From Saccharothrix saharensis (lineage in GTDB: Bacteria > Actinomycetota > Actinomycetes > Mycobacteriales > Pseudonocardiaceae), in contig NZ_VFPP01000001.1 in the NCBI RefSeq assembly GCF_006716745.1, positions 7,327,386-7,391,385 of the forward strand: 64,000 bases of DNA. The letters are read 5' to 3'. How positions within the stretch are numbered: the stretch's first letter is position 1; every line of letters starts with the position of its first letter. Positions 37,791-64,000 of this stretch are shown one piece after another. Below the pieces are notes generated by a model. The model searched no databases, was not told the origin of the DNA, and was given only the letters and a program-made list of their open reading frames with translations. The position numbers were made by a program, and so were the translations under genes.

Positions 37791-38564
37791 GTGGAGGACG
37801 TAATAGAACGGGCGGTCGGCCGGGTCATCGACTTCATGCACGAGAATCTCGGTGAACAGTTCACGATAGATGACATGGCCCGGACAGCCATGTACAGCAA
37901 GTTCCACTTCTCGCGGGCTTTCCAACGGGTTACCGGTGTGTCACCGGGTCGATTCCTGGCCGCCATCCGACTACAAGAGGCCAAACGGCTGCTCGTGTGC
38001 ACCTCGTTGGCGGTCACGGACATCAGCCACCGGGTCGGGTACACGAGCGTCGGCACGTTCAGCTCGAGGTTTCGCAGCAGCGTCGGCGTCTCGCCGACGA
38101 CGTACCGCCAACTGGGAGGATTGACCCCGCCGATCCCGCTGGCCCGGCGGAGTTCCGACCTGCGCACGTCCACCGTGCAGGGAGAGATCTACGCACCTCT
38201 GGGGGGTGCGCCCGGCATCATCTTCCTGGGTCTGTTCCCGGACCGGATCCCGCAGGGGGAACCGGTCCGCTGCTCCATGCTCCACCGGCCGGGACCGTAC
38301 GTGCTCACGAACGTGCCGCCCGGCACGTGGCACCTGCTGGCTCACTCCGTGGCACTGGGGCGGGAGTCGATGCTCGGCGGGGGACCGTTCGCGCAGGACC
38401 AGGAGCTCAACGTGGCGGCGTTCGGACCGGTGTCGGTGCGGGCGGGCGCCCAGGTCAAGGACGTCGACCTGAGCCTGCGCCCGATCGGCACGCTGGACCC
38501 GCCGGTGCTGCTCGCGCTGCCGTACATCCGCACCGTGGCACTGGACGCCGGCGCGGCCAGCTGA
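37791..38564 (+). CDS. AraC-type regulator 1, N-terminal HTH
   Basis: A 257-residue regulator. The double HTH is at the N-terminus (residues about 15-103: FTIDDMARTAMYSKFHFSRAFQRV...VTDISHRVGYTSVGTFSSRFRS). The C-terminal about 140 residues form a beta-rich domain (GIIFLGLFPDRIPQGEPVRCSML, then PGTWHLLAHSVALG) like a transthyretin/CnaB-type sandwich. GTG at 37791 follows GGGGG; an upstream ATG at 37779 has no ribosome binding site. Paralogues at 47.0 and 48.7 kb share the same layout. It is probably a pathway regulator of the enediyne cluster. A hairpin ends the gene. Confidence 0.85.
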   Translation: MEDVIERAVGRVIDFMHENLGEQFTIDDMARTAMYSKFHFSRAFQRVTGVSPGRFLAAIRLQEAKRLLVCTSLAVTDISHRVGYTSVGTFSSRFRSSVGVSPTTYRQLGGLTPPIPLARRSSDLRTSTVQGEIYAPLGGAPGIIFLGLFPDRIPQGEPVRCSMLHRPGPYVLTNVPPGTWHLLAHSVALGRESMLGGGPFAQDQELNVAAFGPVSVRAGAQVKDVDLSLRPIGTLDPPVLLALPYIRTVALDAGAAS

Positions 38565-38580
38565 CCACCGGCGCCACCAG

Positions 38581-38615
38581 GAGGACCCGCCGTCCCGGCC
38601 GGACGGCGGGTCCTC
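38581..38615 (+). terminator. Perfect 15-bp hairpin after AraC regulator 1
   Basis: GAGGACCCGCCGTCC / GGACGGCGGGTCCTC with a 5-base loop, 17 bp after the stop codon. Confidence 0.75.
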
Positions 38616-38935: not shown

Positions 38936-38974
38936 GCCGGCAGCCCGTCACCACCGGGGTGACGGGCTGCCGGC
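38936..38974 (-). terminator. Perfect 17-bp hairpin after unbU
   Basis: GCCGGCAGCCCGTCACC / GGTGACGGGCTGCCGGC around a 5-base loop, about 35 bp after the unbU stop. It marks the end of the unbV-unbU operon. Confidence 0.75.
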
Positions 38975-39008
38975 CGTGCTCGCCCGCGTGCGGGCCGCAC
39001 GGTCCCGA

Positions 39009-40019
39009 TCAGGTCGCGACCACCGCGCCCTGCTTCGGCGCGCCGTTGAGCGCCGGGTCCACAGCGGACGGTTCGACGGTGATGGCCGCCGCGGCCGCCT
39101 TCTTCTGCCGCTCCACCTCCAGGCGGTTCTTCTCGATGAAGTGCAGCGCCCAGTGGAAACCGCCGCGGATCAGGCAGACGATCGCCGTGGCGAAGAACAG
39201 GCCATAGGGGATGCTCATGCCCATCAGGACGCCGTACACCGCCGCCACACCGCCGCCGAACGCGATCTGCGCGGCCGGTTTGGACGGTGATGTGCCCGGG
39301 TCGGTCACCATGTAGTTGGTGTAGAGCACGAACGCGATGCCGGTCATCATGCCGAGACCGGAAGGGATGGAGACGTCCAGGATCATGCCGCGGATGATCG
39401 CCTGGAGCGCGAACCCGATCAGCCAGGCCATGATCAGCCACAGCCGGCCGGTCAGCATGCCGTTCAGCATGGTGCCCGCGGTGATGATGATCAGCGGGAT
39501 CAGCCAGTCGAAGAGCGTGCCCACGTGCTCGCTGAAGTGGTACGGCGGTGCGACCGAAGCCCAGGGGAACACCAGCAGCACCACGGCGATGCCGAAGTTC
39601 GACGGGTTCATGTAGTGCCGCATCCGGCCCTTCACCGGTGCGCGCAGCACCCACTTCGCGCCGACCGCCACGACCACGCCGAAGATCATCACCCAGATCT
39701 GGTCGTTGACGTAGGTCAGCATGTTGACCGCGAGCGCGGTGATGTGGGCGGGGTAGAGGAACTCCATCAAGCCGCGGAACCCGTTGCCCGCGTACCGGGG
39801 CGCGCGACCCTCCTGCCGGGCGCCGATCCACTCCAGCCCGATCTCGACCGCGTAGGCGGTGGCGAGGGCGATGAACGGCCACAGCCACGCCTGCTCGAAC
39901 CCGAGGACGGTGTAACCGAAGATGTTGAAGATGGAGATGGAGATCGCGAAGCGCCTGAGCGCGGTGATGACCTTGGGGTCGTGCCGCGGCGGGCTGGGTG
40001 CCGTCGTGGTCTCGGCCAT
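39009..40019 (-). CDS. unbU: Enediyne accessory membrane protein UnbU (E5)
   Basis: A 336-residue polytopic protein with about eight to nine helices and RnfD/NqrB-like patches (VGAKWVLRAPVKGRMRHYMNPSNFGI, GMMTGIAFVLYTNYMVTDPGTSPSKP). This is the signature of UnbU/E5, one of the conserved genes that travel with pksE in enediyne clusters. Its role is unassigned, and membrane redox is suggested by the RnfD similarity. ATG at 40019 has AGGAGA upstream and lies 5 bases after the unbV stop. An unusual Ala/Lys-rich C-terminal tail of about 35 residues is cytoplasmic. Confidence 0.92.
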   Translation of the reverse strand: MAETTTAPSPPRHDPKVITALRRFAISISIFNIFGYTVLGFEQAWLWPFIALATAYAVEIGLEWIGARQEGRAPRYAGNGFRGLMEFLYPAHITALAVNMLTYVNDQIWVMIFGVVVAVGAKWVLRAPVKGRMRHYMNPSNFGIAVVLLVFPWASVAPPYHFSEHVGTLFDWLIPLIIITAGTMLNGMLTGRLWLIMAWLIGFALQAIIRGMILDVSIPSGLGMMTGIAFVLYTNYMVTDPGTSPSKPAAQIAFGGGVAAVYGVLMGMSIPYGLFFATAIVCLIRGGFHWALHFIEKNRLEVERQKKAAAAAITVEPSAVDPALNGAPKQGAVVAT

Positions 40020-40024
40020 GTCCG

Positions 40025-41983
40025 TCACTTCTCCTTGGCCTGGTCGCCGAGCTGGATGTCGTGCCAGCCGGGGTTCAGTGTCATGTCCTGTTCGTGGATC
40101 TCGCCGTCGCGGTCGCGCCACTTGATGTGCGCCTGCACGGCCCGGTCCTCGGACCCGAGGCCGAAGTGGACCTCGTGGCTGCGCTTGCCGGAGTGACCGC
40201 TGCCGCCGTCCACCCGGTTGACGAACTTCTTGCCCGACGCCGTGGTGATGGTGACCTGCGCGCCGACCACGGGGGACCCCGCGCCGGCGAACGAGCCGTC
40301 GCTGACGGCCTCGTCACGGGTCAGGCGCAGGCCGACGAAGCCGTTGCCGGAACCACCGGTGTTGCGGTAGAAGATCGGGTCCGACCACTGCCGCGAGATC
40401 GCCATGTCCAGCCGGCCGTCGCCGTCGATGTCACCGGTGGCGATGCCCCGCGTCGGGATCTGGGCGGCCATGCCGAGCTGCGGTGACAGGTCGGAGTAGA
40501 AGTCGCGCTGGTTCTTGGCGAAGAAGTGGAAGTGCTGGTTGCCGCCGACGTCGTCGCCGGGACCCACGATCGGCCACCACACGGGGTTGTCCAGCAGCGC
40601 GTCGTTCGCCGTGGCGAGCTCCTGCAGCTGGGGCCAGCGGTTCACGTCGCCCTTCACGAACCCGGTGGCCTGCAGGACCTCCGACTCGCTGTTGTTGTCC
40701 AGGTCGGCGATCTTCACGTCCCAGCCCCAACCGGACCAGGCGAGCTGGAGCGGCGCGCTCTCGTCCTCCCACACCGCTTCGCCGTCCTCCAGGCTGGAGG
40801 TGATCCGGCTCAGGTTGTTCTCGGTGCTCATGAAGGCGAAGTGCGACTCCTCGATGCCGAATGACGTGGTGATGTTGCTGACGTACATGTCGTAGACCTG
40901 GTCGCCGTTCAGGTCGCCGAAGTCGACGCCCATGCCCTTGAACGAGTCGATGCCGACGTTCTTGGACTTCGGCTCCATCGGGCCCTTCGAGCCCTCCACC
41001 ACCTCGAACTTGAGGTTGCCGGGCGTGGACTGGTTGAACAGGAAGCGGTCGGGGCCGAAGTCGTTGCCCACGTACAGCTCGGGCAGCAGGTCGCCGTTGA
41101 CGTCGTTCGCGCTGGACGCCAGGGCCCAGCCCTTCGAGACGTCCTTCTCGAACGGGTCGACCTTCTCCCACTCGGTGCTCGGCTCGTCGCCGGCCGTGCC
41201 GCCCTTCCACAGGAAGATGTAGTCCTCGCCGCCGTTGAAGCCCTGCGACATCGAGTGGTTCATCTCCACGCCGGTGCTCTTGGACGGGTCCAGCACCGGG
41301 CCCTCGGGGAAGTAGTTGCCGATGAAGATGTCGTCGTGGCCGTCGCCGTCGAAGTCGGCCACGGTCGCCGAGTTGGCGTTCCACTGCGGGCCGTCGTAGG
41401 TGCCCGACGACTTGCCCGGCACCAGCTCGGTCGCCAGGTAGGCGTCGTCGTTCAGGCCCGTCGCGTCGGCCTTGGCCAGGTGCAGGATCGGGGTGCGACC
41501 CCACATGTAGATGAGCAGGTCGATCCGGCCGTCCTCGTTGAAGTCGCCGGGCACGCAGCCCATCGGCGCCATCACGTCGTTGACCGGCAGCGACCCGGAC
41601 GACAGGGCGAACGGCTCGTAGCGCGCCGCCTTGCCCGACTCCGGCGCCGGCGTCACGATCACCTGGTCGATGCGCACGTCGACGTAGCACAGGTCGTTGG
41701 ACAGCCCGTCGCCGTCGAGGTCGTTCAGCGCGACCGCGGAACCGACCGAGGAGATCCAGGCGTTGATGTGGGCGTAGCGCTGGTTCACCTGCCGGATGGA
41801 CTGGTGGGTGTAGCCGCCGGGCAGGGCGATCGACTCGGGTGTGAAGCCGAACTGGGCCGCGACCTGCTGCTTCTCCTCGGCCGACACCTCCGGCAGCCGG
41901 GCCACCAAGAACGTGGCCGCGACGAGCACGAGTGCCATGACGCCGGGTAGTTGCCTGCGCAGCCAACTGGCTGTGGAGGTCAC
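40025..41983 (-). CDS. unbV: Enediyne accessory FG-GAP/ASPIC protein UnbV (E4)
   Basis: A 652-residue exported protein. The N-terminal signal anchor covers residues about 10-30. Four or more FG-GAP/VCBS calcium-binding repeats follow (LNDLDGDGLSNDL, PGDFNEDGRIDLL, VADFDGDGHDDIFIGN, GDLNGDQVYDMYVSN, TGDIDGDGRLDMA). A C-terminal ASPIC/UnbV domain ends the protein (GAGSPVVGAQVTITTASGKK ... VHFGLGSEDRAVQAHIKWRDG-like). This is the canonical E4 architecture. The GTG start, with AAGGAG upstream, overlaps by four bases the stop of a degenerate unbL remnant. It is cotranscribed with unbU. Confidence 0.93.
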   Translation of the reverse strand: MTSTASWLRRQLPGVMALVLVAATFLVARLPEVSAEEKQQVAAQFGFTPESIALPGGYTHQSIRQVNQRYAHINAWISSVGSAVALNDLDGDGLSNDLCYVDVRIDQVIVTPAPESGKAARYEPFALSSGSLPVNDVMAPMGCVPGDFNEDGRIDLLIYMWGRTPILHLAKADATGLNDDAYLATELVPGKSSGTYDGPQWNANSATVADFDGDGHDDIFIGNYFPEGPVLDPSKSTGVEMNHSMSQGFNGGEDYIFLWKGGTAGDEPSTEWEKVDPFEKDVSKGWALASSANDVNGDLLPELYVGNDFGPDRFLFNQSTPGNLKFEVVEGSKGPMEPKSKNVGIDSFKGMGVDFGDLNGDQVYDMYVSNITTSFGIEESHFAFMSTENNLSRITSSLEDGEAVWEDESAPLQLAWSGWGWDVKIADLDNNSESEVLQATGFVKGDVNRWPQLQELATANDALLDNPVWWPIVGPGDDVGGNQHFHFFAKNQRDFYSDLSPQLGMAAQIPTRGIATGDIDGDGRLDMAISRQWSDPIFYRNTGGSGNGFVGLRLTRDEAVSDGSFAGAGSPVVGAQVTITTASGKKFVNRVDGGSGHSGKRSHEVHFGLGSEDRAVQAHIKWRDRDGEIHEQDMTLNPGWHDIQLGDQAKEK

Positions 41984-42966: not shown

Positions 42967-43671
42967 ATGACCCAGCCGAAAGTCGTCTCGCGTGCGGAGT
43001 GGTTGGAGGCGCGCAAAGCGCTGCTGGAGAAGGAGAAAGAGGTCACGCGCGCCCGCGACATGATCGCGGAGGAACGCCGGAAGCTGCCGATGGTCAAGGT
43101 GGAGAAGGACTACACCTTCGAAGGGCCCGGCGGCAGCCGGCTCACGCTGCTCGACCTGTTCGAGGGCCGCCGCCAGCTGATCGTCCGGCACTACATGTTC
43201 AGCCCCGGCGCCAAGGAGGGCTGCATCGGCTGCTCGATGCAGGCGGACAGCGTCGGCGAGCTCGCCCACATGTGGGCCCGCGACACCACGTTCGTCATGA
43301 TCTCGCGCGCGCCGGTGGCCGACTTCGAGCCGTTCAAGCAGCGCATGGGCTGGAACATCCCGTGGTACTCGTCGTTCGGCAGCGACTTCAACTACGACTA
43401 CGAGGTCTCCACCGAGATGGGCGAGTCGCCGGGGGTCAGCGCGTTCTACCGCGAGGGCGACGACGTCTTCTTCACCTACTCGATCTTCGACCGCGGCGGG
43501 GACATCTTCAAGAGCTTCTACAACTACCTCGACATCACCCACCTCGGTCGGCAGGAGGAGCAGCTCGACCACCCGTGGGACTGGTGGCGCTTCAAGGACA
43601 CCTACGACGCCGAGGAGTCGCACGGGCCGGGCGACAACTGGTGGAACGGCACCAGGTACCAGCAGGCGTAG
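42967..43671 (+). CDS. DUF899 thioredoxin-like protein
   Basis: A 234-residue protein of the DUF899 family, a thioredoxin-fold branch. The characteristic start is VVSRAEWLEARKALLEKEKEVTRARD. A GCIGCSM motif (CxxC, about residues 79-82) sits where thioredoxins carry their active site. The DWWRFKDTYD region near the end is typical. ATG has AAGGAG upstream. In an enediyne region a CxxC protein could take part in thiol chemistry or protection from the activated product, but this is inference. DUF899 proteins also occur outside such clusters. Confidence 0.85.
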   Translation: MTQPKVVSRAEWLEARKALLEKEKEVTRARDMIAEERRKLPMVKVEKDYTFEGPGGSRLTLLDLFEGRRQLIVRHYMFSPGAKEGCIGCSMQADSVGELAHMWARDTTFVMISRAPVADFEPFKQRMGWNIPWYSSFGSDFNYDYEVSTEMGESPGVSAFYREGDDVFFTYSIFDRGGDIFKSFYNYLDITHLGRQEEQLDHPWDWWRFKDTYDAEESHGPGDNWWNGTRYQQA

Positions 43672-43816: not shown

Positions 43817-44509
43817 ATGCCGGGAACGAGCCGGGTGCGGGTCACCGACGACATCGCCTACCGCACCGTCCGGGAGAACTTCGCGGCACTGCTGGCCGAA
43901 CCGGGGGCCCGCGCGGACGTCCGGCTCCCGGCGTGTCCGGAGTGGACGGTCCGCGACGTCGTGGCGCACATGGTGGACAACGTGCTGACGGCGTTGCGCC
44001 GGGCGTCCGTCGCACCGCCGGAAGTCCCCGCCGCCGACGCGTCACCCGGGGAGCTGCTCGACGCCTGGCTGCGGCTGGGCGAGGGCCTGGACGTGCACCT
44101 GCACGCCAACGACGGCGAACGCGGACCCGCGGTGCTGGTGATGGACGCGTTCACCCACGAGGTCGACCTGCGGTACGCGCTCGGCGCGCCCGTGCCCGCC
44201 GAGCACGTCGCCTACCGGCGCTCGCTCGGCCTGCTGACCGCCGGGTTCGGCGAGTCGGTGCGCGCGCACGGCCTGCCGTCGGTCCGCGTGCTGTGCGACG
44301 GCGCCGAGTGGGTCTGCGGCGCGGGCGCGCCCGCGGTGACGCTCGTCGCGTCGCGGCACGACGCGCACCGCGCGCTGGCCGGGCGTCGCAGCCACGTCCA
44401 GCTCACCGCGATGGACTGGAGCGACGACCCGCGACGGTGGCTGCCCGCGTTCACGTGGGGCCCGTTCACCCCGCCCGCCGAGCCGGGTGACGCGCTCAGC
44501 GCGGGCTAG
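43817..44509 (+). CDS. Putative mycothiol-dependent maleylpyruvate isomerase-like protein
   Basis: A 230-residue protein with the MDMPI N-terminal DinB-like bundle: PACPEWTVRDVVAHMVDN (residues about 40-57), a metal-binding His, and the second conserved motif VMDAFTHEVDLRYALG. The C-terminal part is a small alpha/beta domain. Family members use mycothiol as cofactor or substrate for isomerisation or detoxification. In this setting it might handle an electrophilic or reactive product. Its last 14 bases overlap the convergent TetR gene. Confidence 0.82.
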   Translation: MPGTSRVRVTDDIAYRTVRENFAALLAEPGARADVRLPACPEWTVRDVVAHMVDNVLTALRRASVAPPEVPAADASPGELLDAWLRLGEGLDVHLHANDGERGPAVLVMDAFTHEVDLRYALGAPVPAEHVAYRRSLGLLTAGFGESVRAHGLPSVRVLCDGAEWVCGAGAPAVTLVASRHDAHRALAGRRSHVQLTAMDWSDDPRRWLPAFTWGPFTPPAEPGDALSAG

Positions 44510-45188
44510 CGACCGCCTCGGCCGGCTCCGGGTCGGCCTCCACCTCGCGCCGCCTGCGCTTCCGGGAGGCCGTCATCGAGGCCGACACCGACCGGGGGTC
44601 GTCGCCGACGCCGAGCAGCAGGCTGTTCAGGATCGTGTCGTAGCAGCGGTCTGCGTCGACCGGGTCGATCAGGTAGCCGCCGAGCTCGAGGTTGACCAGG
44701 CCGTGCGTGGCGATCCACATCTCGTGCGCGATCAGGATCGGGTCGTCGCGGCGGAACCGGCCCGCCTCGATGCAGCGGGTGGCGCAGTCCACGACGGTGA
44801 GCAGCGTGTACCGGCCGAACTGGCGGTCGGACTCGGTGAGCGAGAACCCGGCCAGCGACTGCCCGCCGAACATCACCGCGTACAGGTGGGAGTTCGCCTT
44901 GGCGTTCTGCCGGTAGGCGTAGCCGAGCACGGCCATGTCCGCGACCGGGTCGTCGGTCCGGCGCACCTGCGCGAACTGGCGCTCCAGCCGGGAGAAGCCC
45001 TCGTGCACCATCTCCCGGACCAGGCCGCTCATGCTGCCGAAGTGCGTGTAGACGGCCATCGTCGACGTGCCGGCCTCGGCCGCGATCTTCCTGGTGGACA
45101 GCGCCTCGGCGCCGTGCTCGGCCAGCAGCCTCGCGGCGATGTCGACGAGCGCGGCACGGGTTTCGGGATCCAGCTTGCGAGGACTCAC
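44496..45188 (-). CDS. TetR-family regulator
   Basis: A 230-residue protein. The HTH is ALSTRKIAAEAGTSTMAVYTHFGSMSGLVREMV and the ligand domain is of the TetR_C WHG type (EMWIATHGLVNLELGG). A basic RKRRRREVEADPEPAE tail is unusual. GTG at 45188 is the natural start; a TTG 18 bases earlier would put the N-terminus nearly leaderless. A palindromic operator lies just upstream. It may control the neighbouring mycothiol-type enzyme or cluster efflux. Confidence 0.87.
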   Translation of the reverse strand: MSPRKLDPETRAALVDIAARLLAEHGAEALSTRKIAAEAGTSTMAVYTHFGSMSGLVREMVHEGFSRLERQFAQVRRTDDPVADMAVLGYAYRQNAKANSHLYAVMFGGQSLAGFSLTESDRQFGRYTLLTVVDCATRCIEAGRFRRDDPILIAHEMWIATHGLVNLELGGYLIDPVDADRCYDTILNSLLLGVGDDPRSVSASMTASRKRRRREVEADPEPAEAVASPR

Positions 45189-47007: not shown

Positions 47008-47754
47008 GTGCACGATGCCGTCCAGCGCGCCATCACCATGATGCGTGCGAACTACTATGAACCACTCACGTTGCGCGATGTCGCGGGCGCCGCACTGGTC
47101 AGTCCCTTCCACTTCTCCCGCCTGTTCCACGCGGCGGTCGGCGTGCCGCCGGGCCGGTACCTGACGGCGGTCCGATTATTCGAGGCCAAACGGTTGCTGC
47201 TGACCACGTGGATGAACGTCGCCGACATCGTCGCCACCATCGGGTACAGCAGCGTGGGCACCTTCACGACCAGGTTCACCCGTGCGGTCGGCCTCTCGCC
47301 GACCCAGTACCGCAACCCGGAGGTCAGCGGCCTGCTCGCGGCCGTCGCGCTGCCCGACTTCGACAACCCGCTGGAGACCGGCTCGCCGGTCTTCGACGCG
47401 ATGCCGGTGCCCCGCTTCGGCGGCAGCGGCTCCCCGGTCGGCACGCTGGAGGTGGCGGCGGCGGACGACGCGTCCGAGGTCACCGTCGGTGTCATCGACG
47501 ACCTGATCCCGCGCAGCGCGCCGGCGGCGAGCACCCTCGTCGACGGGCCGCGCGGGCCCGAGCTCGTCGTCGGGGCCGCGGCCACCCGATGCGTCGCGGT
47601 CGCGCTGCGCGGCCCGAACCCGCCGGCCGGCCTGGCGTTCGCGGGCGGGGTGAGCCACGCGATCACCGTCGGCGCGGGACAGCACCTGCGGGTCGGCGTC
47701 CGGATGCGCGACCGGGCACCGGCGCCGGTCCCGGTCGGCACAGGTCGGCGGTGA
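47008..47754 (+). CDS. AraC-type regulator 2, N-terminal HTH
   Basis: A 248-residue paralogue of regulator 1. The HTH pair is at residues about 15-100 (LTLRDVAGAALVSPFHFSRLFHAAVGVPPGRYLTAVRLFEAKRLLLTTW... VADIVATIGYSSVGTFTTRFTRAVG). The C-terminal domain is the most diverged of the three: it is beta-rich but lacks the FPD/QGEP core seen in regulators 1 and 3. GTG at 47008 follows AAAGGAA. It precedes the short unbL copy by 105 bp and may be in its operon. Confidence 0.83.
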   Translation: MHDAVQRAITMMRANYYEPLTLRDVAGAALVSPFHFSRLFHAAVGVPPGRYLTAVRLFEAKRLLLTTWMNVADIVATIGYSSVGTFTTRFTRAVGLSPTQYRNPEVSGLLAAVALPDFDNPLETGSPVFDAMPVPRFGGSGSPVGTLEVAAADDASEVTVGVIDDLIPRSAPAASTLVDGPRGPELVVGAAATRCVAVALRGPNPPAGLAFAGGVSHAITVGAGQHLRVGVRMRDRAPAPVPVGTGRR

Positions 47755-55429: not shown

Positions 55430-56299
55430 TTACGGCTGCGGGAAGAACTTGGTGACGAACACCTCCCACGCGCGGTCGCCGAAGATCGCGCGCTGCGGCT
55501 TGAGCAGGTGGGTCGGGAGGCCGAGCCGGTAGCGGATCCGCGGGTTGGGGTCCGTGATGGCCTTCTCGATGGTCTCGGCGACCTTGCCGGAGCGCACCGC
55601 CGTGCGGCCGCGGCCCTTGGGCTTGTCGACCTCGCGGTAGGCGCCGTGCCAGACGACGAAGCGCTCCCAGAAGTCGGCGTACAGGTCGCTGTCGGTGGCC
55701 AGGCCCAGGTCGCCGACGGTGGTCGGCACGAACGAGCCCAGGATCGGCGACGGCTCGATGATGGACACCTTGATGTCCCACGGCTTCACCTCGAGCCGCA
55801 GCGAGTCGCTGATGGCCTCCAGGGCGTGCTTGGTGGCCTGGTAGTAGCCGCGGCCGGGCGTGGCGAACAAGCCGAAGATCGACGACATCATGATGATCCG
55901 CCCGGACCGCTGCTCGCGCATGCCCGGCAGCACGAGTTGCGTCATCCGGGACAGGCCGAAGAAGTTCGTCTCGAACTGCCGGCGCACCTGCTCCATCGGC
56001 GTCTCGCCGATCGTGCCGTTGAGGCTGTAGGCGGCGTTGTTCACCAGGACGCCGACCGCGCCGTGGTCCTCGGTGATCCGCTCCACGGCGGCGACCATCG
56101 ACTCCTCGTCGGTGACGTCCACCTGGAGCGTGGTGATGCCCTCGTCCGCGAGGTCCTTCAGGCCGCGCAGGTCGCGCCCGGTGGCGTACACCGGCCAGCC
56201 GGCGCGGTGCAGGCGCAGCGCGGTGGCGCGGCCGGTGCCGGAGGACAGGCCGCCCGAGGAGTTGACGCCGGTGATCAGGACCGCGCGCGAACCGGTCAC
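55430..56299 (-). CDS. Short-chain dehydrogenase/reductase with extended nucleotide loop
   Basis: A 289-residue SDR. The nucleotide loop reads TGVNSSGGLSSGTGRATA (residues 10-27), about six residues longer than the usual TGxxxGIG. NNAA is at 87-90. The catalytic residues are Ser139 or Ser140 (IMMSSIFG), Tyr153 and Lys157 (YYQATK). The C-terminal extension ends in ...KFFPQP. It would reduce a ketone or oxidise an alcohol with NAD(P). The ATG overlaps the stop of the AhpD-like gene (ATGA), and it is the last gene of that operon. Confidence 0.9.
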   Translation of the reverse strand: MTGSRAVLITGVNSSGGLSSGTGRATALRLHRAGWPVYATGRDLRGLKDLADEGITTLQVDVTDEESMVAAVERITEDHGAVGVLVNNAAYSLNGTIGETPMEQVRRQFETNFFGLSRMTQLVLPGMREQRSGRIIMMSSIFGLFATPGRGYYQATKHALEAISDSLRLEVKPWDIKVSIIEPSPILGSFVPTTVGDLGLATDSDLYADFWERFVVWHGAYREVDKPKGRGRTAVRSGKVAETIEKAITDPNPRIRYRLGLPTHLLKPQRAIFGDRAWEVFVTKFFPQP

Positions 56300-56901
56300 A
56301 CCTCACCTCCCGTCGGGACCTCCTGCTGCGACACCCGGCTCGCGGCCACGGAGAAGCCCAGGCCGAGGCCGTCCACCATCCGGGTGATGAAGTTGAACAT
56401 GCCGGCGATGAAGAAGCCCTCCAGCAGTTCCTCGGACGTCCAGCCGGCGTCCGTGGCGACCTTCCAGTCCGCGTCGGTGATCTTGTACGCCTCCTTGCTC
56501 AGCTTGGTCAGCAGGCGCAGCAGGACCTTGGTGCGCTCGTCGACCGGCAGGTCCTCCACGCTCTCCGCGGACTCGACGGCCTGCGCCGTCTCCTGCGGGC
56601 CGCCGAACGCCTGGAAGAAGAAGTTGTGCGTCCCGACGCAGTACGGGCACTGGTTCACCTTCGACGTCCACGCGGCGATCAGCTCGCGCGTGGCCCGCGG
56701 CATGATGCCGGTGATGAACATGCCCTTGTAACCGGCCACCACGCCCTCGAGCAGGTCCGGCCGCGTGGACAGCAGGCGGAACATGTCCGGCACGAACGGC
56801 AGGTTGGTGTTGCTCTTGATGTCGGCGTACAGCTCGGCGAGGCGGCCTTCGGCCTGACCCTCCTCGACCAGCGGAACCCGGACGTGGGTGGTTGCGTCCA
56901 T
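56296..56901 (-). CDS. Peroxidase-related AhpD-like CxxC protein
   Basis: A 201-residue protein of the carboxymuconolactone-decarboxylase/AhpD clan. The active-site motif is NQCPYCVGTHNFF (Cys85, Cys88, His92), followed by the usual long helix region. The start is set at the ATG following AAAGGTGAG rather than the in-frame upstream codons. It would use the thiol pair against peroxides or reactive intermediates. It is coupled to the SDR downstream and lies 7 bp after the UbiB-family gene. It is the second CxxC AhpD-fold protein in the region. Confidence 0.85.
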   Translation of the reverse strand: MDATTHVRVPLVEEGQAEGRLAELYADIKSNTNLPFVPDMFRLLSTRPDLLEGVVAGYKGMFITGIMPRATRELIAAWTSKVNQCPYCVGTHNFFFQAFGGPQETAQAVESAESVEDLPVDERTKVLLRLLTKLSKEAYKITDADWKVATDAGWTSEELLEGFFIAGMFNFITRMVDGLGLGFSVAASRVSQQEVPTGGEV

Positions 56902-56908: not shown

Positions 56909-58228
56909 TCACCTTTCAACAGCGGGTTGGGCGTCACGGGGGATGTTGCGGCGACGCAGGACCGGGATGGCCTCGGCCTGGAAGTCGAGGTCGGAGTCGA
57001 AGCCCTTGATCATGCCCTCGATGACCAGCAGCGAGAGCAGGGGGAAGGCGAACTCCGGGGCGGGGAACAGGCCGAACCGGCGTTGCAGGTCGAACAGCCT
57101 GCCCGCGAACCGGGCCAGGTCGAACTCGCCGGACTTCGCGCCCGACGTCTCCGACACCAGCTCGCCGAGCGCGGCCCGGAAGCCCTCCAGGTCGCAGTCG
57201 TCGGCGATCTCGGCAGCGCTCTCGATGACGATCTGGGCGCACATCCAGCCGTCGCCCATCGCCATGTTGATGAAGAAGTCGGCGAACGACCGGCGCACCG
57301 GGTCGGGCAGCTTGATGACGAAGCCCGCGTCCAGCATCACCAGGTCGGCGTTGAGGTCGAAGTACAGGTTGCCGGGGTGCAGGTCGCAGTGGACGAAGCC
57401 GTCGATGAACAGCATCTCGTAGACCGTGCCCAGCACCGCCCGCTGCACCGAACGCCGGGTGTCGAGGTCCAGCTCGCCCGGCTCGAAGCGCCGCAGGTCG
57501 CCGATGAACTCCATGACCACGGTCTCGGGCGTGCACAGCTCCGGCAGCGGCGCGGGGATCGTCACGGTGCGGGTGCCGCCTTCCAGGTTGTCCCGCAGCG
57601 CGCGCAGCGACGCGGCCTCGGCGGCGAAGTCGAGCTGGCGCAGGATCGCGCCGCCGACCTGGGCGTGCATCAGCTTGAACGGCATCTTGCGCAGCCTGGG
57701 CAGCATGCCCATGAGGCTCATCGCCGAGGCGGTCAGGGTGAAGTCCTGCCACATCACGCGCTCGATGCCGGGCCGGCGCACCTTGACCGCCACGCGCCGA
57801 CCGTCCAGCGTCACGGCCTCGTGCACGGTCGCGATGCTGCCGGAGGCGACCGGTTCCCAGTCGAATTCCCGGAACGGCCACGGCCGGTCGCGGTAGGCCT
57901 CGCGCACGGCGCGCTCGATCCGGCGCCGGCGCGGCGGCGCGGCGCCGTCCGTGAGGCGGGCCAGGGGCGTGGTCACCTCTTCGGGCAGCAGGTCGCGCCG
58001 GGTGCTCAGCAGCTGGCCGATCTTGATGTAGGACGGTCCGAGGCGGGTGAGCATCCGGACCCAGCGGTCGCCGTCGCGCACGCCTCGGCCGCCGGTCGAG
58101 CGCCGCAAGCGCGCGCCGGCCGCGGAGCCCGCGATGACCACGCCGTAGCAGGCCACGATGAGGCCGACCCACGCGCAGCGCAGCACCAGTCCGGGCAGCC
58201 GCACCAGGCGGCCAGTGGTCTTGGTCAT
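56909..58228 (-). CDS. ABC1/UbiB-family kinase-like protein
   Basis: A 439-residue protein with an N-terminal hydrophobic segment (about residues 12-38). The UbiB hallmark GPSYIKIGQLLSTRRDLLPEE is followed by the atypical A-rich nucleotide loop ASGSIATVHEA, Lys in VAVKVRRPG, the catalytic HCDLHPGN and the metal-binding LDAGFV (the family usually has LDFG). These atypical kinases/ATPases support quinone or lipid biosynthesis at membranes. A role in an enediyne operon is unexplained. ATG at 58228 is preferred over a GTG 36 bases earlier. Confidence 0.88.
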   Translation of the reverse strand: MTKTTGRLVRLPGLVLRCAWVGLIVACYGVVIAGSAAGARLRRSTGGRGVRDGDRWVRMLTRLGPSYIKIGQLLSTRRDLLPEEVTTPLARLTDGAAPPRRRRIERAVREAYRDRPWPFREFDWEPVASGSIATVHEAVTLDGRRVAVKVRRPGIERVMWQDFTLTASAMSLMGMLPRLRKMPFKLMHAQVGGAILRQLDFAAEAASLRALRDNLEGGTRTVTIPAPLPELCTPETVVMEFIGDLRRFEPGELDLDTRRSVQRAVLGTVYEMLFIDGFVHCDLHPGNLYFDLNADLVMLDAGFVIKLPDPVRRSFADFFINMAMGDGWMCAQIVIESAAEIADDCDLEGFRAALGELVSETSGAKSGEFDLARFAGRLFDLQRRFGLFPAPEFAFPLLSLLVIEGMIKGFDSDLDFQAEAIPVLRRRNIPRDAQPAVER

Positions 58229-58524: not shown

Positions 58525-59589
58525 TCAGAGGCCCAGTGCGGCCTCGGCCAGCCTGGTGCCCTCGACGCGCGCGGCGATCTTGGCGAACGCCGTGTCGCGC
58601 GAGGTGGAGGTGTCGTCGGCGAACGGCGCGAACCCGCAGTCGTCGCACGTGCCGAGCCGCTCGACCGGGATGAACTCCGCCGCTTCCAGCACCCGGTCGC
58701 GCACCTCTTCGGCCGTCTCGATCCGGGGGTCGATGGGGTCGGTGACGCCGACGAAGACCCGTGCGTCGGCGGGCAGGTGCTCGGCGATGATCCCGAGCAC
58801 CCGGCGGCGGTCGGGCTCGCCGGCCAGCTGCACGTAGAACCGGCCCGCCTTGATCCGGAAGAGGTCCGGCAGCAGGTCGGCGTAGTCGACGTCCGCGCTG
58901 TGCGTGGAGTCCTGGTCGCCGCCGGGGCAGGTGTGCACGCCGATCCTGGCCCGCTCCTCGGCGGAGAACCGCTCCAGCACCGCGTTGTTCAGCGCCACGA
59001 AGTCGCGCAGCAGCCCGCCCGACGGGTCGAGCTTGAGCGACAGCCGTCCTTCGGTGAAGTCCAGCTGCACCACCTCCGCGCCCTCGTCCAGGCAGGCGCG
59101 GATGTCGGCCTCGGTCTCGTCGACGAGGTCGGCGAGGAACTCGTCGCGCGGGTAGCCGTCGATGCCGCCCGCCGGGTAGAGCAGGCTCAGCGCCGACGGC
59201 GCGATCACCGGCTGCTTCACCGGCAGCGACGTGAGCCGCCGCGTGGCGCGCAGCAGGTCGACGGCGTGCGCGGTGTAGCGGAACGGCCCGCTGGTCAGCA
59301 CGGGCAGCTCCCGGGTGTGCCCGTCGGCGAACGGCACGACCGCGCCGCCCGCCGCCAGGTCGGGTATGCCCGCCACCGGGTAGGTCAGGAAGCTCGGCTT
59401 GTCCTGCTCGCCGTCGGTGACCACCGGCGAGCCGGTGGCCTCGAACCGGCTGACCGTGTCCGCCAGCGCCTTGTCGGTCAGCTCCCGCAGCCCGGCGGCG
59501 TCGAGCCGGCCCTCCGCGTGGTCCTGGAAGCCCCGCAGGAGCTCCGCGGGACGCGGGACGCTGCCGATCGGCTCGGTCGGAATGCCCAT
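58525..59589 (-). CDS. Cobalamin-independent methionine synthase-like protein (MetE C-terminal domain only)
   Basis: A 354-residue TIM-barrel protein matching only the catalytic half of MetE (full MetE is about 750). The zinc ligands are visible: His219 and Cys221 (GVHTCPGG), with Cys315 or Cys318 (GTCDDCGF) as the third. A catalytic Glu/Asp region lies at VQLDFTEGRL. Such short core-MetE-like proteins could transfer a methyl group to homocysteine or another thiol from an unknown donor. Within the enediyne region it might regenerate methionine/SAM, or act on a thiol. ATG at 59589 is 25 bp downstream of the membrane-protein gene. Confidence 0.82.
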   Translation of the reverse strand: MGIPTEPIGSVPRPAELLRGFQDHAEGRLDAAGLRELTDKALADTVSRFEATGSPVVTDGEQDKPSFLTYPVAGIPDLAAGGAVVPFADGHTRELPVLTSGPFRYTAHAVDLLRATRRLTSLPVKQPVIAPSALSLLYPAGGIDGYPRDEFLADLVDETEADIRACLDEGAEVVQLDFTEGRLSLKLDPSGGLLRDFVALNNAVLERFSAEERARIGVHTCPGGDQDSTHSADVDYADLLPDLFRIKAGRFYVQLAGEPDRRRVLGIIAEHLPADARVFVGVTDPIDPRIETAEEVRDRVLEAAEFIPVERLGTCDDCGFAPFADDTSTSRDTAFAKIAARVEGTRLAEAALGL

Positions 59590-59614: not shown

Positions 59615-60592
59615 TCAGGCCCACGGGGCCGTCGGGTACCACGGGATGATCTCCCGGCGGGCCAGCAACCTGATGTCCCAGTACAGGAAGGTGAAGACGC
59701 CGGCGACGATCAGCGCGACCGCCGTCACGGCGGCGATCCGGCCCGGCTTGGCCATGAGCCACCGCTGCAAGCGGCCGCCGGTGAAGTACGCCAGCACGAG
59801 GAACAGTAGGGCCATGATGACGATGTTGCCGACCGACTGGAGGGTGAACGCCGCTGCGCCGTACAGGGGGTTGTGGCTCTCCGCCGCGTCACGGAACATC
59901 TGCCGGAATAACCCGAACGGGCGACCGATGAGGAACCCGCCGATGAGCACGCCCATGAACACCATCGGGGCGTTCGGGAACCGCTGGGAGATCTTGCGGA
60001 ACGGGTCGCGCACCAGGCCGAGGGCGGCCAGCCCCAGGTAGAACATGACCAGGCCGATGACGCCGAACACGACCAACGACTGGATGCTGCGGCTGCTCAG
60101 CGTGCCCGGCGCGTTCGCGGCGGTGGAGAACTGCGGCATCCGGGTGCCGATGATCCCGACCAGCACGCCGTACAGCGCCGACACCGGGATCATGCCGACG
60201 GCCAGCCACCCGATCGGCTTGAGCGTGGCGACCAGCTTCGCCCAGCGCGTCCCGGTGGAACCGAGCATCGGCGCGACGGCGCCGAACGCGGCGATGTTGC
60301 ACGCGGTGAACGTGCCCGCGATGCCGCTGACGAACGCGAACGCGATGCCCGCCGCGATGCCCTGGATCGGGGTCTCCTTGGCGTCGTGGCCGAGCAGCGT
60401 GTTGGCCACGTTGTCACCGATCACCGAGTCGACGAAGTGCGCCGACCACACCACGGTCAGCAGGAAGCCCGCGATCGAGCTGAGCAGGACGATGAGCCCG
60501 CGCCTGCGCGGGAAGTCCCCCGTGACGAACGTCGAGGTGCCGGGGGTTCCGGACCCCGGTCGGTCGAGCTGCCTGGTGCCGGTGCGCGCCAT
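59615..60592 (-). CDS. Polytopic membrane protein of enediyne operon
   Basis: A 325-residue protein with about seven to eight helices. The segment GIAGTFTACNIAAFGAVAPML (about residues 90-110), with a Cys inside a Gly/Ala-rich helix, resembles the CcdA/DsbD-like redox transmembrane family, but a second paired Cys in a partner helix is not obvious. ATG at 60592 has GGAGAGG upstream. It is first in the minus-strand unit with the MetE-like gene and divergent from pksE. It could be an exporter or a membrane redox partner; neither is proven. Confidence 0.65.
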   Translation of the reverse strand: MARTGTRQLDRPGSGTPGTSTFVTGDFPRRRGLIVLLSSIAGFLLTVVWSAHFVDSVIGDNVANTLLGHDAKETPIQGIAAGIAFAFVSGIAGTFTACNIAAFGAVAPMLGSTGTRWAKLVATLKPIGWLAVGMIPVSALYGVLVGIIGTRMPQFSTAANAPGTLSSRSIQSLVVFGVIGLVMFYLGLAALGLVRDPFRKISQRFPNAPMVFMGVLIGGFLIGRPFGLFRQMFRDAAESHNPLYGAAAFTLQSVGNIVIMALLFLVLAYFTGGRLQRWLMAKPGRIAAVTAVALIVAGVFTFLYWDIRLLARREIIPWYPTAPWA

Positions 60593-60961: not shown

Positions 60962-63900
60962 ATGAGCAGTGAGCGGATCGCAATCGTCGGCATCGGCCTG
61001 CGCTACCCCGATGCCGGTTCCACCGGGGAACTGTGGGAAAACGTCCTGGCCGGTCGTCGGGCCTTCCGCAGGCTGCCCGACGAACGGATGAACCAGGCGG
61101 ACTACTACGACCCCAATCCCGAAGCACCGGACCGCTTCTACTCGAAGATGGCGGCCGTGCTGCGCGACTTCGAGTTCGACCGGGTCCGCTACCGCGTGGC
61201 CGGCAGCACGTTCCGCTCCACGGACATGACGCACTGGCTGGCGCTCGACGTCACCTCCCAGGCGCTGGCCGACGCGGGTTTCCCGGAGGCCGAGGGCCTG
61301 CCGAAGCAGAGCACCGGCGTGGTGCTGGGCAACAGCCTCACCGGTGAGTTCTCCCGCGCGAACGTGATGCGGCTGCGCTGGCCCTACGTGCGGCGCACGG
61401 TCGCCGCGGCGCTGGCCGGCAAGGGGTGGCCCGAGGACGAGATCGCGGGCTTCCTGCGCGAGCTGGAAGTGGACTACAAGGCACCGTTCCCGGAGATCAA
61501 CGAGGACACCCTCGCGGGTGGCCTGGCGAACACGATCGCGGGCCGCATCTGCAACTACTTCGACCTGCGCGGCGGCGGCTACACCGTCGACGGCGCCTGC
61601 TCCTCGTCGCTGCTGTCGGTCGCCACGGCGGCCAAGTCGCTGGTCGAGGGCGACATGGACGTGGCCATCGCGGGCGGTGTCGACCTGTCGATCGACCCGT
61701 TCGAGGTCATCGGCTTCGCCAAGACCGGCGCGCTGGCCAAGCGCGTGATGAAGGTCTACGACAAGGACTCCAACGGCTTCTGGCCGGGCGAGGGCGCCGG
61801 GTCGCTCGTGCTGGTGCGCGAGGCCGACGCGCTGGCCAAGAACATGCGCATCTACGCCACCATCGCGGGCTGGGGCGTCTCGTCGGACGGCAAGGGCGGC
61901 ATCACCCGCCCCGAGGCCGACGGCCACCGCCTGGCCCTGCACCGCGCCTACGGCCGCGCGGGCTACGGCCTGGAGACCGTGTCCTACTTCGAGGGCCACG
62001 GCACCGGCACGGCGCTGGGTGACGAGACGGAGATCGAGGCGCTGTCCTCGGCCCGCCGCGCCGCCGACCCGGACGCCCGGCCGGCCGCGCTGAGCACCGT
62101 CAAGGGCAACTTCGGGCACACCAAGGCCGCGGCGGGGGTCGCCGGACTGATCAAGGCGGCCCTCGCCGTGCACCACCAGGTCATCCCGCCGGGCACCGGG
62201 CACTTCGACCCGCACCCGAAGCTGACCGCGGACGACGCGGTGATGTACGTGCCGCTGGAGGCCGAGCTGTGGCCGGAGGACCGCCCGGTGCGCGCCGGCG
62301 TGTCGGCCATGGGCTTCGGCGGCATCAACACCCACATCGCGCTGGAGGCCGCGCCCGACGCGCCCCGCCGCGAGCAGCTCGACGTGCGGACCAAGGCGGT
62401 CGTCTCCGGCCGCCAGGACGCCGAGGTGCTGCTGTTCGACGCGCCCGACCGCACGGCGCTGAAGGACAAGCTGGCCGAGGTCTCCGCGCTGCTGCCGAAG
62501 CTCGCGCTGGCCGAGCTGGGCGACCTGGCGGCGGCGCTGGCGGACCGGCTCACCGGCGCGCCCCTGCGCGGCGCGGTCGTGGCCCGCACCCCGGAGGAGG
62601 CCGAGCGCAAGGTCGCCAAGCTGGTCGCCGCGGTCGCCGAGGGCGTCACCACCTTCGACGTCGCCGACGGCGTGTTCCTCGACGAGTGGACCGCGCCACC
62701 GCGCCTGGCGTTCCTGTTCCCGGGCCAGGGCTCGGGCCGGGGCGCGGTCGGCGCGCTGCGCCGTCGGTTCCCCGTCGCCGAGGAGGTCTTCCGGTCCGCG
62801 AACCTGCCCACCGACGGCGACCAGGTCGCCACGGAGGTCGCGCAGCCGCGGATCGTGGCGGGCTCGCTCGCCGCGCTGAAGGTGCTGCGCGAGCTGGGCA
62901 TCGACGCGAACACGGCGGTCGGGCACAGCCTCGGCGAGCTGACCGCCCTGCACTGGGGTGGCGCGATCAACGCCAACCGGGTGCTGTCGCTGGCCGCGGA
63001 ACGCGGTCGGGTGATGGCGAGCGCCAGCCAGGGCGGCGGCGCGATGGCGGGCCTGGGCACCACGCCCGAGCGGGCGCTGGAGCTGGCCGCGGGCGAGGAC
63101 GTGGTGATCGCGGGCTACAACGGCCCGGCGCAGACCGTGCTGTCCGGCCCGGCCGAGGCCGTCGACCGGGTGATCTCGGTGGCACGCGCCGCGGGCGTGC
63201 AGGCCACCCGCATCAACGTCTCCCACGCGTTCCACTCGCCGCTGGTGTCCCCGGCGGCCGAGGCCATGCGGGAGCGGCTGACCGAGTTCGACTTCGGTCG
63301 GGTGATCCGGCCGGTGCTGTCCACCGTCACCGGCGGGGTGCTGGAGGCGGACACGGACGTGCGCACGCTGCTGCGCGACCAGATCACCCTCCCGGTCCGG
63401 TTCCACGAGGCCGCCGCCAAGGCCGCCGCGGTCGCGGACCTCGTCGTCGAGGTCGGCCCCGGCCGGGTCCTCGGCGGACTGCTGGAGGAGATCGCCCCCG
63501 ACAAGCCCGTGCTCTCGGTCGACACCGACAGCGCGTCGCTCACCTCGCTGCTGACCGTCGTCGCCGCCACCCACGCGCTGGGCGGCGAGGTCCGCACCGA
63601 CGTGCTGTTCGCCGACCGGGTCATCCGCGACCTGCCGCTGGACGGCTCGATGACCTTCCTGGCCAGCCCCTGCGAGACGGCCCCCGCCCTCGACTCGAAC
63701 CTGCTCGCGGCGGAGCTCGACGCGCCGGCCGCGGCCAAGTCGGCCCAGCCGGCGGCGGGCTCGGACGGCGAGTCCACGCTGGAGCTGCTGCGCCGGCTGG
63801 CCGCGCAACGCGTCGAGCTGCCGCTGGAGGCCATCACCGCGCAGACCCACCCGCTGGACGACCTGCACCTGAGCTCCATCACGGTCGGCCAGCTGGTCAA

Positions 63901-64000
63901 CGAGGTCACCCGCACCCTGGGCCGCCCGGCCCTGGAGGGCACGACCAACTTCGCCACCGTGCGGATGGGCGAGCTGGCCGACCTGATCGACAACCTGGCC
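60962..64000 (+). CDS. pksE: Enediyne polyketide synthase PksE, 5' part
   Basis: The first 1013 codons of an iterative type I enediyne PKS, open at the right edge. KS domain, residues about 4-465: active-site Cys213 (VDGACSSSL), His346 (EGHGTGT), His386 (NFGHTKAAAG). AT domain, about 580-890: FPGQGS from residue 586, Ser656 in GHSLGE, SHAFHSPL at 754-761. The ACP, about 925-1013, has the enediyne-type HLSSITVGQLV with Ser971 or Ser972 as the phosphopantetheine site. KR, DH and PPTase domains should follow beyond the window. The start RIAIVGIGLRYPDAGS and GRRAFRRLPDERM are PksE signatures. It makes the linear polyene precursor of the enediyne core. Confidence 0.96.
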   Translation, partial: MSSERIAIVGIGLRYPDAGSTGELWENVLAGRRAFRRLPDERMNQADYYDPNPEAPDRFYSKMAAVLRDFEFDRVRYRVAGSTFRSTDMTHWLALDVTSQALADAGFPEAEGLPKQSTGVVLGNSLTGEFSRANVMRLRWPYVRRTVAAALAGKGWPEDEIAGFLRELEVDYKAPFPEINEDTLAGGLANTIAGRICNYFDLRGGGYTVDGACSSSLLSVATAAKSLVEGDMDVAIAGGVDLSIDPFEVIGFAKTGALAKRVMKVYDKDSNGFWPGEGAGSLVLVREADALAKNMRIYATIAGWGVSSDGKGGITRPEADGHRLALHRAYGRAGYGLETVSYFEGHGTGTALGDETEIEALSSARRAADPDARPAALSTVKGNFGHTKAAAGVAGLIKAALAVHHQVIPPGTGHFDPHPKLTADDAVMYVPLEAELWPEDRPVRAGVSAMGFGGINTHIALEAAPDAPRREQLDVRTKAVVSGRQDAEVLLFDAPDRTALKDKLAEVSALLPKLALAELGDLAAALADRLTGAPLRGAVVARTPEEAERKVAKLVAAVAEGVTTFDVADGVFLDEWTAPPRLAFLFPGQGSGRGAVGALRRRFPVAEEVFRSANLPTDGDQVATEVAQPRIVAGSLAALKVLRELGIDANTAVGHSLGELTALHWGGAINANRVLSLAAERGRVMASASQGGGAMAGLGTTPERALELAAGEDVVIAGYNGPAQTVLSGPAEAVDRVISVARAAGVQATRINVSHAFHSPLVSPAAEAMRERLTEFDFGRVIRPVLSTVTGGVLEADTDVRTLLRDQITLPVRFHEAAAKAAAVADLVVEVGPGRVLGGLLEEIAPDKPVLSVDTDSASLTSLLTVVAATHALGGEVRTDVLFADRVIRDLPLDGSMTFLASPCETAPALDSNLLAAELDAPAAAKSAQPAAGSDGESTLELLRRLAAQRVELPLEAITAQTHPLDDLHLSSITVGQLVNEVTRTLGRPALEGTTNFATVRMGELADLIDNLA

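What the first reader, a model, noticed from the sequence alone, without database searches (positions are those of the whole stretch)
37791..64000. Enediyne cluster with the core cassette split over more than 20 kb
PksE, UnbL (E3), UnbV (E4) and UnbU (E5) are all present. In most described clusters E3-E4-E5 are adjacent and close to E/E10. Here E4-E5 (39.0-42.0 kb), E3 (52.5-53.5 kb) and E (from 61 kb) are in three separate operons, mixed with regulators and redox genes. The accessory set (DUF899, MDMPI-like, two AhpD-like proteins, UbiB, MetE-like) is not one I can match to a named enediyne family, so the product may be new.
Basis: partly seen in the sequence, partly recalled or inferred. Interest (0 to 1): 0.85.

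Follow-up and report, generated by a model that had tools for sequence, protein, structure and literature searches.

The report
Mosaic enediyne gene cluster, core split
A soil actinomycete's gene cluster for making an enediyne (a DNA-cutting natural product) appears to be two different enediyne clusters merged into one: a foreign-type block of about 15 kb sits where a normal cluster keeps two core genes, so its product does not fit the published rule for predicting enediyne type.

Summary
E5-E4 (39.0-41.9 kb), E7-E3 (51.2-53.5 kb) and PksE (from 60.96 kb; E10 and E6 follow just past the window) lie in three blocks; E4 and PksE start 19.0 kb apart.

The split is a lineage trait with a visible cause. 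It occurs in 9 of 25 genomes of the genus, own included. Eight others have a compact cluster with E2, E8 and E9. In the window a ~15 kb block (DUF899, MDMPI, AhpD, E7-E3, GMC, SDR, AhpD, UbiB) fills the slot that holds E3-E2 in a compact relative. Most block genes match a separate cluster family, self-contained in G168, that lacks E2 and E9. Five split relatives keep that family's E4-E5 with its PKS cut down to an AT (in one, KS-AT with the KS motif lost); the window keeps an internally deleted E3.

So it looks like a merger of two cluster families. E2, E8 and E9 were not found in this one-contig genome, so the published 9/10-membered rule does not call it 9-membered; R3 could not be tested. 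The origin of E3 is unsettled by tree. Product unknown; of characterised clusters only C-1027 was compared whole. A new variant of a known kind.

The parts
37779..38564 (+). AraC-family regulator 1, canonical-cluster type
   Evidence: Pfam HTH_18; 80% to the six canonical regions, 42% to the block-family regions
39009..40019 (-). E5 (UnbU-like membrane protein), canonical lineage
   Evidence: 79% canonical vs 55% block family; in the Saccharothrix E5 clade, 13 rows, SH-aLRT 99
40025..41938 (-). E4 (UnbV/ASPIC), canonical lineage
   Evidence: Pfam UnbV_ASPIC; 74% vs 47%; Saccharothrix E4 clade, 14 rows, SH-aLRT 100
42967..43671 (+). DUF899 protein, first gene of the foreign-type block
   Evidence: Pfam DUF899; 82% to G168 vs 50% to the canonical regions
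43817..44509 (+). MDMPI-like (TIGR03083) protein
   Evidence: 44% in G168, 46% in L031; no match in the six canonical regions
44496..45188 (-). TetR regulator
   Evidence: Pfam TetR_N; 62% vs 67%, uninformative on origin
47008..47754 (+). AraC regulator 2
   Evidence: Pfam HTH_18; 38% vs 36%, uninformative
47860..48666 (+). second DUF1702 gene (E3b), internally deleted in frame; read as a relic of a second cassette
   Evidence: matches DUF1702 positions 8-45 and 98-319 only; full-length counterpart in G003, 72-73%; the loss lies between two copies of a short repeat seen in G003
48743..49510 (+). AraC regulator 3, block type
   Evidence: 56% to G168 vs 43% to the canonical regions
49943..51028 (-). 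long AhpD/CMD-like protein
   Evidence: Pfam CMD; 50% vs 46%, nearly neutral
51158..52525 (-). E7-type cytochrome P450, block type by tree
   Evidence: Pfam p450; groups with G168 and G082 P450s (93/99), holding it with the canonical E7s rejected, p-AU 0.016; identity neutral, 67% vs 68%
52522..53517 (-). E3 (UnbL, DUF1702), in an E3-E7 pair
   Evidence: Pfam DUF1702; E3-E7 order as in G168 and G082; tree placement unsettled
53813..55360 (+). GMC oxidoreductase, not the E9 type
   Evidence: Pfam GMC; 71% to G082 vs 37% to the canonical regions; the E9 search does not find it at E <= 1e-60
55430..56299 (-). SDR oxidoreductase, block marker
   Evidence: 76% to G082, no match in the canonical regions; at E <= 1e-100 in 6 of 298 genomes of the order sample, three of them this genus
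56296..56901 (-). AhpD-like peroxidase-related protein
   Evidence: TIGR01926 just under its cut-off; 68% to G082, no match in the canonical regions
56909..58228 (-). UbiB/ABC1-like protein, last gene of the block
   Evidence: Pfam ABC1; 61% to G082; not seen in the 60 kb of G168 read
58525..59589 (-). MetE-like protein, canonical flank
   Evidence: Pfam Meth_synt_2; 77% to G018, no match in block-family regions
59615..60592 (-). membrane protein of unknown family, beside PksE in 13 of the 18 congener regions compared
   Evidence: no Pfam/NCBIfam hit; 80% vs 51%
60962..64000 (+). PksE, 5' part; the gene ends 2727 bases past the window (G000:C1:7394112), followed by E10 and E6
   Evidence: domains; residues aligned with SgcE C211, S974, D1827 kept (their roles recalled); clade with the canonical clusters

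Best explanation
It is an enediyne-type biosynthetic cluster formed by the merger of two cluster families. A canonical Saccharothrix cluster (E5-E4 ... MetE-membrane protein-PksE-E10-E6) supplies the synthase half. A ~15 kb block of the kind found in a second cluster family (DUF899, MDMPI, AhpD, E3-E7, GMC, SDR, AhpD, UbiB) sits where a compact relative keeps E3-E2; E2, E8 and E9 are gone and E7 is of the other lineage. The split is the scar of that replacement plus later loss of the incoming E4-E5-PKS. Likely working order (family chemistry, recalled, not shown here): PksE makes an ACP-bound polyene, E10 releases it, E3/E4/E5 with E6/E7 and the block's redox enzymes turn it into an enediyne-type core, and other block genes decorate or detoxify it. 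That one PksE serves a foreign tailoring set is inferred from gene content.
For: Gene-by-gene identity switches along the window (six canonical regions vs four block-family regions): canonical-like at 37.8-41.9 kb (AraC1, E5, E4: 80/79/74% vs 42/55/47%), block-family-like at 43.0-58.2 kb (DUF899 82 vs 50, GMC 71 vs 37; SDR, AhpD, UbiB matched only there), canonical-like again from 58.5 kb (MetE 77 vs none; membrane protein 80 vs 51; PksE 81 vs 71; E10 89 vs 82; E6 80 vs 64; SDR61 80 vs 61; PccB 87 vs 78). In G018 the interval between E4 and MetE holds E3 and E2. The other family stands whole in G168: E4b-E5b-PksE-E10-E6, E3-E7, AraC3, AhpD genes, SDR, TetR, GMC, DUF899 within 32 kb, one DUF1702 gene and no E9 in that genome. 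Intermediates: 5 of 9 split genomes (G003, G020, G013, G002, G011) still carry E4b-E5b, a shrunken PKS and E6b between E4 and E7. Trees: window E4, E5 and PksE sit in the Saccharothrix clades; E7 does not (p-AU 0.016). dN/dS against G015 is 0.12-0.33 for PksE, E3, E4, E5, E7.
Against: E3: monophyly with the canonical E3s was rejected in one sampling (p-AU 0.0104) but not in two later ones with block-family rows (0.083; 0.139), and the window E3 moved in the tree; only its gene order supports block origin. E7 identity alone is neutral (67% vs 68%), and the clades tested were named after quick trees had been seen. E4, E5 and PksE trees are quick ones with SH-aLRT only. TetR and AraC2 are uninformative, long AhpD nearly so. 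UbiB is matched in G082, not in G168. Actinocrispum (L031) has block genes beside a PksE 70-71% identical to the window's, so the two families already mix elsewhere. Both share ancestry, so loss within one ancestral large cluster could mimic a merger. No product or expression is known.
Confidence: 0.72

Rival explanations
1. Ordinary 9-membered enediyne cluster whose genes were merely reshuffled, with E2, E8 and E9 elsewhere in the genome.
For: PksE, E10, E6, E4, E5 are closest to E2/E8/E9-bearing clusters; E10 scores best against chain 4i4j (taken as SgcE10 from recall) at 245 bits, then CalE7 215, DynE7 140. In G004 and G010 an E2-E5/E7-E9 set does lie on another contig.
Against: In the window's one-contig genome neither E8 nor E9 is found (10 of 25 genomes have both, none of the 9 split ones), and its DUF1702 proteins are E3-type, not E2.
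Confidence: 0.08
2. A decaying, non-functional cluster: the split and the losses are pseudogenisation, as seems under way in relative G017.
For: E3b is internally deleted; G017 has no E3-E5 within 40 kb upstream of PksE, its best E4 in the genome is 43%, and its SDR61, PEP66 and FADNAD65 genes are called short or in two pieces.
Against: PksE, E3, E4, E5, E7, GMC, SDR and UbiB are open reading frames of normal length in the window; dN/dS 0.12-0.33 for five of them; GMC, SDR, AhpD and UbiB are kept at 72-98% in the eight other split genomes.
Confidence: 0.15
3. One ancestral large cluster held both gene sets and lineages lost different parts, so no transfer was needed.
For: E3 monophyly is not robustly rejected; some regulators are equally close to both families; L031 already combines block genes with a PksE of this clade.
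Against: Both kinds exist as compact sets with their own PksE; the block sits in the E3-E2 slot; the second E4-E5-PKS pieces in 5 genomes are redundant copies.
Confidence: 0.18

Closest known systems
C-1027 cluster, Streptomyces globisporus plasmid SGLP1 (9-membered enediyne)
   Same: PksE 54-55% identical with aligned catalytic residues kept; E3, E4, E5, E6, E7, E10 homologues present
   Different: C-1027 has E2-E3-E4-E5-E-E6-E7 contiguous plus E8, E9, E11 (E-numbers other than SgcE6 recalled); the window has three separate blocks, no E2/E8/E9, and GMC/SDR/AhpD/UbiB genes instead
Putative enediyne cluster 6 of Saccharothrix espanaensis (PMC3469384, passages seen); G007 is taken to be that strain from its chromosome length, by recall
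   Same: Same PksE clade, 75% identity; same flanking membrane protein, E10, E6, SDR
   Different: Compact, with E2, E8, E9; no foreign-type block
Unnamed self-contained cluster family seen in G168 (same order, other family); partly in G193, G082 and Actinocrispum wychmicini (L031)
   Same: G168 carries most of the window's block genes, with the E3-E7 order
   Different: It has its own E4b-E5b-PksE beside the block and no UbiB in the 60 kb read; the window uses the Saccharothrix PksE and E4-E5
Streptomyces sp. NBC_00523 plasmid cluster (L185)
   Same: E4/E5 of the block family (trees); MDMPI-type, carotenoid oxygenase and TetR genes; E3 downstream of PksE
   Different: Also has an E2-type DUF1702, DUF5987, GMC and TIGR03084 genes, as 9-membered clusters do

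Membership tests
Enediyne PKS cassette (E3/E4/E5/E/E10) | PksE with the enediyne-synthase domain layout and catalytic residues | tested here: met
   KS, AT, ACP (weak), KR, DH matches; GACSS, GHSLG, and residues aligned with SgcE C211, S974, D1827 (the roles of those residues are recalled); no Pfam match for the C-terminal PPTase
Enediyne PKS cassette (E3/E4/E5/E/E10) | E3, E4, E5 and E10 all encoded | tested here: met
Enediyne PKS cassette (E3/E4/E5/E/E10) | genes clustered together | tested here: not met
   E4 and PksE start 19.0 kb apart with a foreign-type block between; clustering is usual but already known not to be universal
9-membered enediyne cluster | E2 gene present (published predictor, PMC5181780 section 8) | tested here: not met
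   DUF1702 search of the whole genome gives E3 and the E3b relic only; neither falls in the E2 clade
9-membered enediyne cluster | E8 and E9 present (seen in all ten E2-bearing genomes of the genus) | tested here: not met
   no hit in G000
10-membered enediyne cluster | R3 gene present (published predictor) | not testable with these tools
   no R3 reference sequence was at hand
Enediyne producer | an enediyne metabolite with DNA-cleaving activity | not testable with these tools
   sequence only

The most novel reading that the evidence does not exclude
The split clusters make a third kind of enediyne-type core, neither classic 9- nor 10-membered, by a natural hybrid pathway: a generic polyene-synthase half (PksE-E10-E6-E4-E5) was taken over by a tailoring half from another family, whose own synthase then shrank to a lone acyltransferase or vanished. 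If so, enediyne core genes are interchangeable modules that need not be neighbours; the bipartite relatives G004 and G010, with PksE and the E2-E5/E7-E9 set on different contigs (by contig positions at least ~215 and ~150 kb apart), would be working examples.
Probability: 0.3. Interest if true: 0.8.

Novelty: new variant of a known kind. Interest (0 to 1): 0.6.

Why it matters
What decides whether an enediyne pathway ends in a 9- or 10-membered core is an old question; a 2010 paper states in its title that PKS chemistry does not (Horsman et al., seen only in a reference list). Here nature appears to have made the swap: a PksE-E10-E4-E5 set akin to E2/E8/E9-bearing clusters sits with a tailoring set that lacks E2, E8 and E9, in nine genomes. 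That gives a natural series in one genus (compact, split with second cassette, split without it, bipartite, decayed) in which the role of each core gene can be tested by deletion and metabolite comparison. It also warns genome miners: scanning for contiguous cassettes can miss or mis-type such clusters, and the E2/R3 rule leaves them unassigned unless R3 is found.

Tried and rejected
Idea that E2/E8/E9 are elsewhere in the genome: rejected for this genome. Idea that three relatives simply lost E3-E5: holds only for G017; G004 and G010 carry a canonical set on another contig. Idea that the accessory set is unique: rejected. Use of the E3 tree as proof of transfer: withdrawn, since the AU result depends on the rows sampled (0.0104, 0.083, 0.139). 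The plasmid DNA search with the window gave 30 records, 27 of them at 60-80% identity and none covering 80% of the query. Structure search with E3 found no solved relative. Paper searches (listings and starts of abstracts seen) showed no title or abstract start about a merged enediyne cluster; only open-licence papers are held, and the 2016 network paper PMC4753101 is not. R3 could not be tested. E11 was looked for only in the fetched regions. Functions of MetE, UbiB and DUF899 were not pursued. On re-checking I corrected contig-distance minima, E5 identities and identity ranges, and lowered confidence from 0.74 to 0.72 because L031 shows mixing elsewhere and UbiB is not in G168.
Full report
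WHAT IS THERE. The window is G000:C1:7327386-7391385 of a one-contig 8.92 Mb genome. Genes were called by codon usage and named by Pfam/NCBIfam and by comparison with the C-1027 record; E-numbers other than SgcE6 are recalled. PksE ends at 66727 in extended coordinates, followed by E10 (66729-67187) and E6 (67184-67690). E5 has no Pfam or NCBIfam hit and is named from its place beside E4 and from relatives. E4 and PksE start 19,024 bases apart. Residues aligned with SgcE C211, S974 and D1827, and the AT motif GHSLG, are kept (roles recalled). In the listed matches this is the only full-length PksE-type hit in G000.

KINSHIP OF PksE. In the genus, 20 of 25 genomes (own included) carry a close PksE (66-100%); the other five do not. 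One scan of named genomes gave 67 loci, mostly Saccharothrix, Amycolatopsis, Actinophytocola and other Pseudonocardiales, partly the same strains. At 33% identity and half the length, 49 of these 67 loci have E4 within the flanks held, at most 10 kb; some of the other 18 are short or cut by contig ends. C-1027 PksE is 54-55% identical. E10 scores best against PDB chain 4i4j (named ACP-polyene thioesterase; SgcE10 by recall), then CalE7, then DynE7. Names for G handles are inferred from equal contig lengths: G015 = NRRL B-16348, G010 = S. luteola, G004 = S. carnea, G017 = Saccharothrix sp. S26, G018 = MAG RH59, G005 = S. deserti, G008 = S. yanglingensis, G013 = A. pretiosum DSM 44132.

FOUR LAYOUTS IN ONE GENUS. 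The 20 genomes fall into: (a) compact, E4-E5 within 9 kb of PksE: 8 (G005, G007, G008, G009, G012, G016, G018, G023); (b) split like the window: 9 (G000, G015, G019, G022, G003, G020, G013, G002, G011), E4 18-44 kb upstream; (c) bipartite: G004 and G010, where PksE-E10-E6 stay at the home site and an E11-E2-E3-E4-E5-E7-E8-E9 set lies on another contig, by contig positions at least about 215 kb (G004) and 150 kb (G010) away; (d) G017, with no E3-E5 within 40 kb upstream, only a 43% E4 in the genome, and neighbours called short or in pieces. E8 and E9 are found in 10 of 25 genomes, exactly those of (a) and (c), and in none of (b). The DUF1702 proteins of the window's genome are E3-type, not E2.

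WHERE THE SPLIT COMES FROM. Each window gene was compared with six canonical regions (G018, G023, G005, G007, and the remote sets of G004 and G010) and with four regions that carry the SDR marker (G168, G193, G082, L031). Identity switches twice: canonical-like to 41.9 kb; block-family-like from 43.0 to 58.2 kb (DUF899 82 vs 50; GMC 71 vs 37; SDR 76, AhpD 68, UbiB 61 with no canonical match); canonical-like again from 58.5 kb (MetE 77 vs none, membrane protein 80 vs 51, PksE 81 vs 71, E10 89 vs 82, E6 80 vs 64). In G018 the interval between E4 and MetE holds only E3 and E2; in the window it holds the block. The other family stands alone in G168: E4b-E5b-PksE-E10-E6, then E3-E7, AraC, AhpD genes, SDR, TetR, GMC and DUF899 within about 32 kb, without UbiB in the 60 kb read, with one DUF1702 gene and no E9 in that genome. 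UbiB is matched in G082, beside the AhpD and SDR genes. At E <= 1e-100 the SDR marker was found in 6 of 298 genomes sampled in the order, three of them in this genus.

INTERMEDIATES AND SCARS. Five split genomes (G003, G020, G013, G002, G011) still carry E4b-E5b, a piece of PksE and E6b between native E4 and E7. In G003 the piece is KS-AT of 810 aa with the KS motif lost (VDDAWSWS where PksE has VDGACSS); in the other four only the AT remains (429-444 aa) with GHSLG intact. Their E4b and E5b group with NBC_00523 and Actinocrispum (SH-aLRT 100 and 99). Of this cassette the window keeps E3b, missing DUF1702 positions 46-97 in frame; the loss lies between two copies of a short repeat still seen in G003. 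A relic search with G003's second cassette found no E4b, E5b, PKS or E6b remnant in the window's gap.

TREES, FOR AND AGAINST. E4, E5 and PksE of the window fall in the Saccharothrix clades with the compact genomes (quick trees). E7 groups with G168 and G082 (93/99), and holding it with the canonical E7s is rejected (p-AU 0.016). For E3 the same test gave 0.0104 on the first set, 0.083 after adding G168, G082 and G193 and 0.139 with G193 removed as a long branch; a few outgroup rows also differed between the first set and the later two. E3's origin is therefore open by tree, though its E3-E7 order matches G168 and G082, while the compact clusters run E2-E3-E4-E5-E7 (G009 places E2 apart). The groups tested were named after quick trees had been seen.

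IS IT ALIVE? Nei-Gojobori dN/dS against G015 is 0.28 PksE, 0.33 E4, 0.28 E5, 0.22 E3, 0.12 E7, which suggests constraint. E3b against G003, over the aligned parts, gives dN 0.19 and dS 0.46 (ratio 0.41).

A THIRD REMNANT. At extended coordinates 100930-105049 lies UbiB2-E4'-E5'. In G003 the same genes are part of a UbiB2-E3'-E4'-E5'-PksE'-E10' set; in the window's genome the PKS of that set is gone, and E4'/E5' show dN/dS 0.29-0.41 against three relatives.

WHAT IT PROBABLY MAKES. The published rule assigns 9-membered products to clusters with E2 and 10-membered ones to clusters with R3 (PMC5181780, section 8 read). E2 is absent; R3 could not be tested. The cassette genes argue for an enediyne-type product; core size and decoration are unknown. 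Characterised clusters other than C-1027 were not compared whole, so a named relative of the block family cannot be excluded.

VERDICT. Its most likely cause is a merger of two enediyne cluster families followed by loss of one synthase. This is a new variant of a known kind.

Noticed in passing
L011:7930-12049 (34-38 kb past PksE): UbiB2-E4'-E5' operon without a PKS, a remnant of a third enediyne cassette that has PksE' and E10' in G003.
   Followed up: partly
L116, L118, L131, L134, L140 (G003, G020, G013, G002, G011): A second PksE reduced to KS-AT with the KS motif lost (G003) or to a stand-alone AT with GHSLG kept (other four), each beside E4b-E5b; a reductive series toward a discrete acyltransferase.
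   Followed up: partly
L164-L167 (G004:C9, G010:C23) versus L105 and L101: Bipartite layout: PksE-E10-E6 at the home site, an E11-E2-E3-E4-E5-E7-E8-E9 set on another contig with no PksE in the 40 kb read there.
   Followed up: partly
L010:4321-4983: LexA gene 10.6 kb past the end of PksE, near it in six congeners too; a DNA-damage regulator beside a likely DNA-damaging pathway may be coincidence.
   Followed up: no
L080 (Haloechinothrix aidingensis): PksE of this clade preceded by E4/E5 that group with the other (about 43%) family in the trees; another mixed core, on a long branch.
   Followed up: no
L041, L059, L095 (Streptomyces and Kitasatospora): E2, E3, E7, E8, E9 lie near PksE but E4 and E5 were not found within the flanks held.
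   Followed up: no
L010:8663-11278: CHAT-domain protein of 871 aa past the cluster.
   Followed up: no
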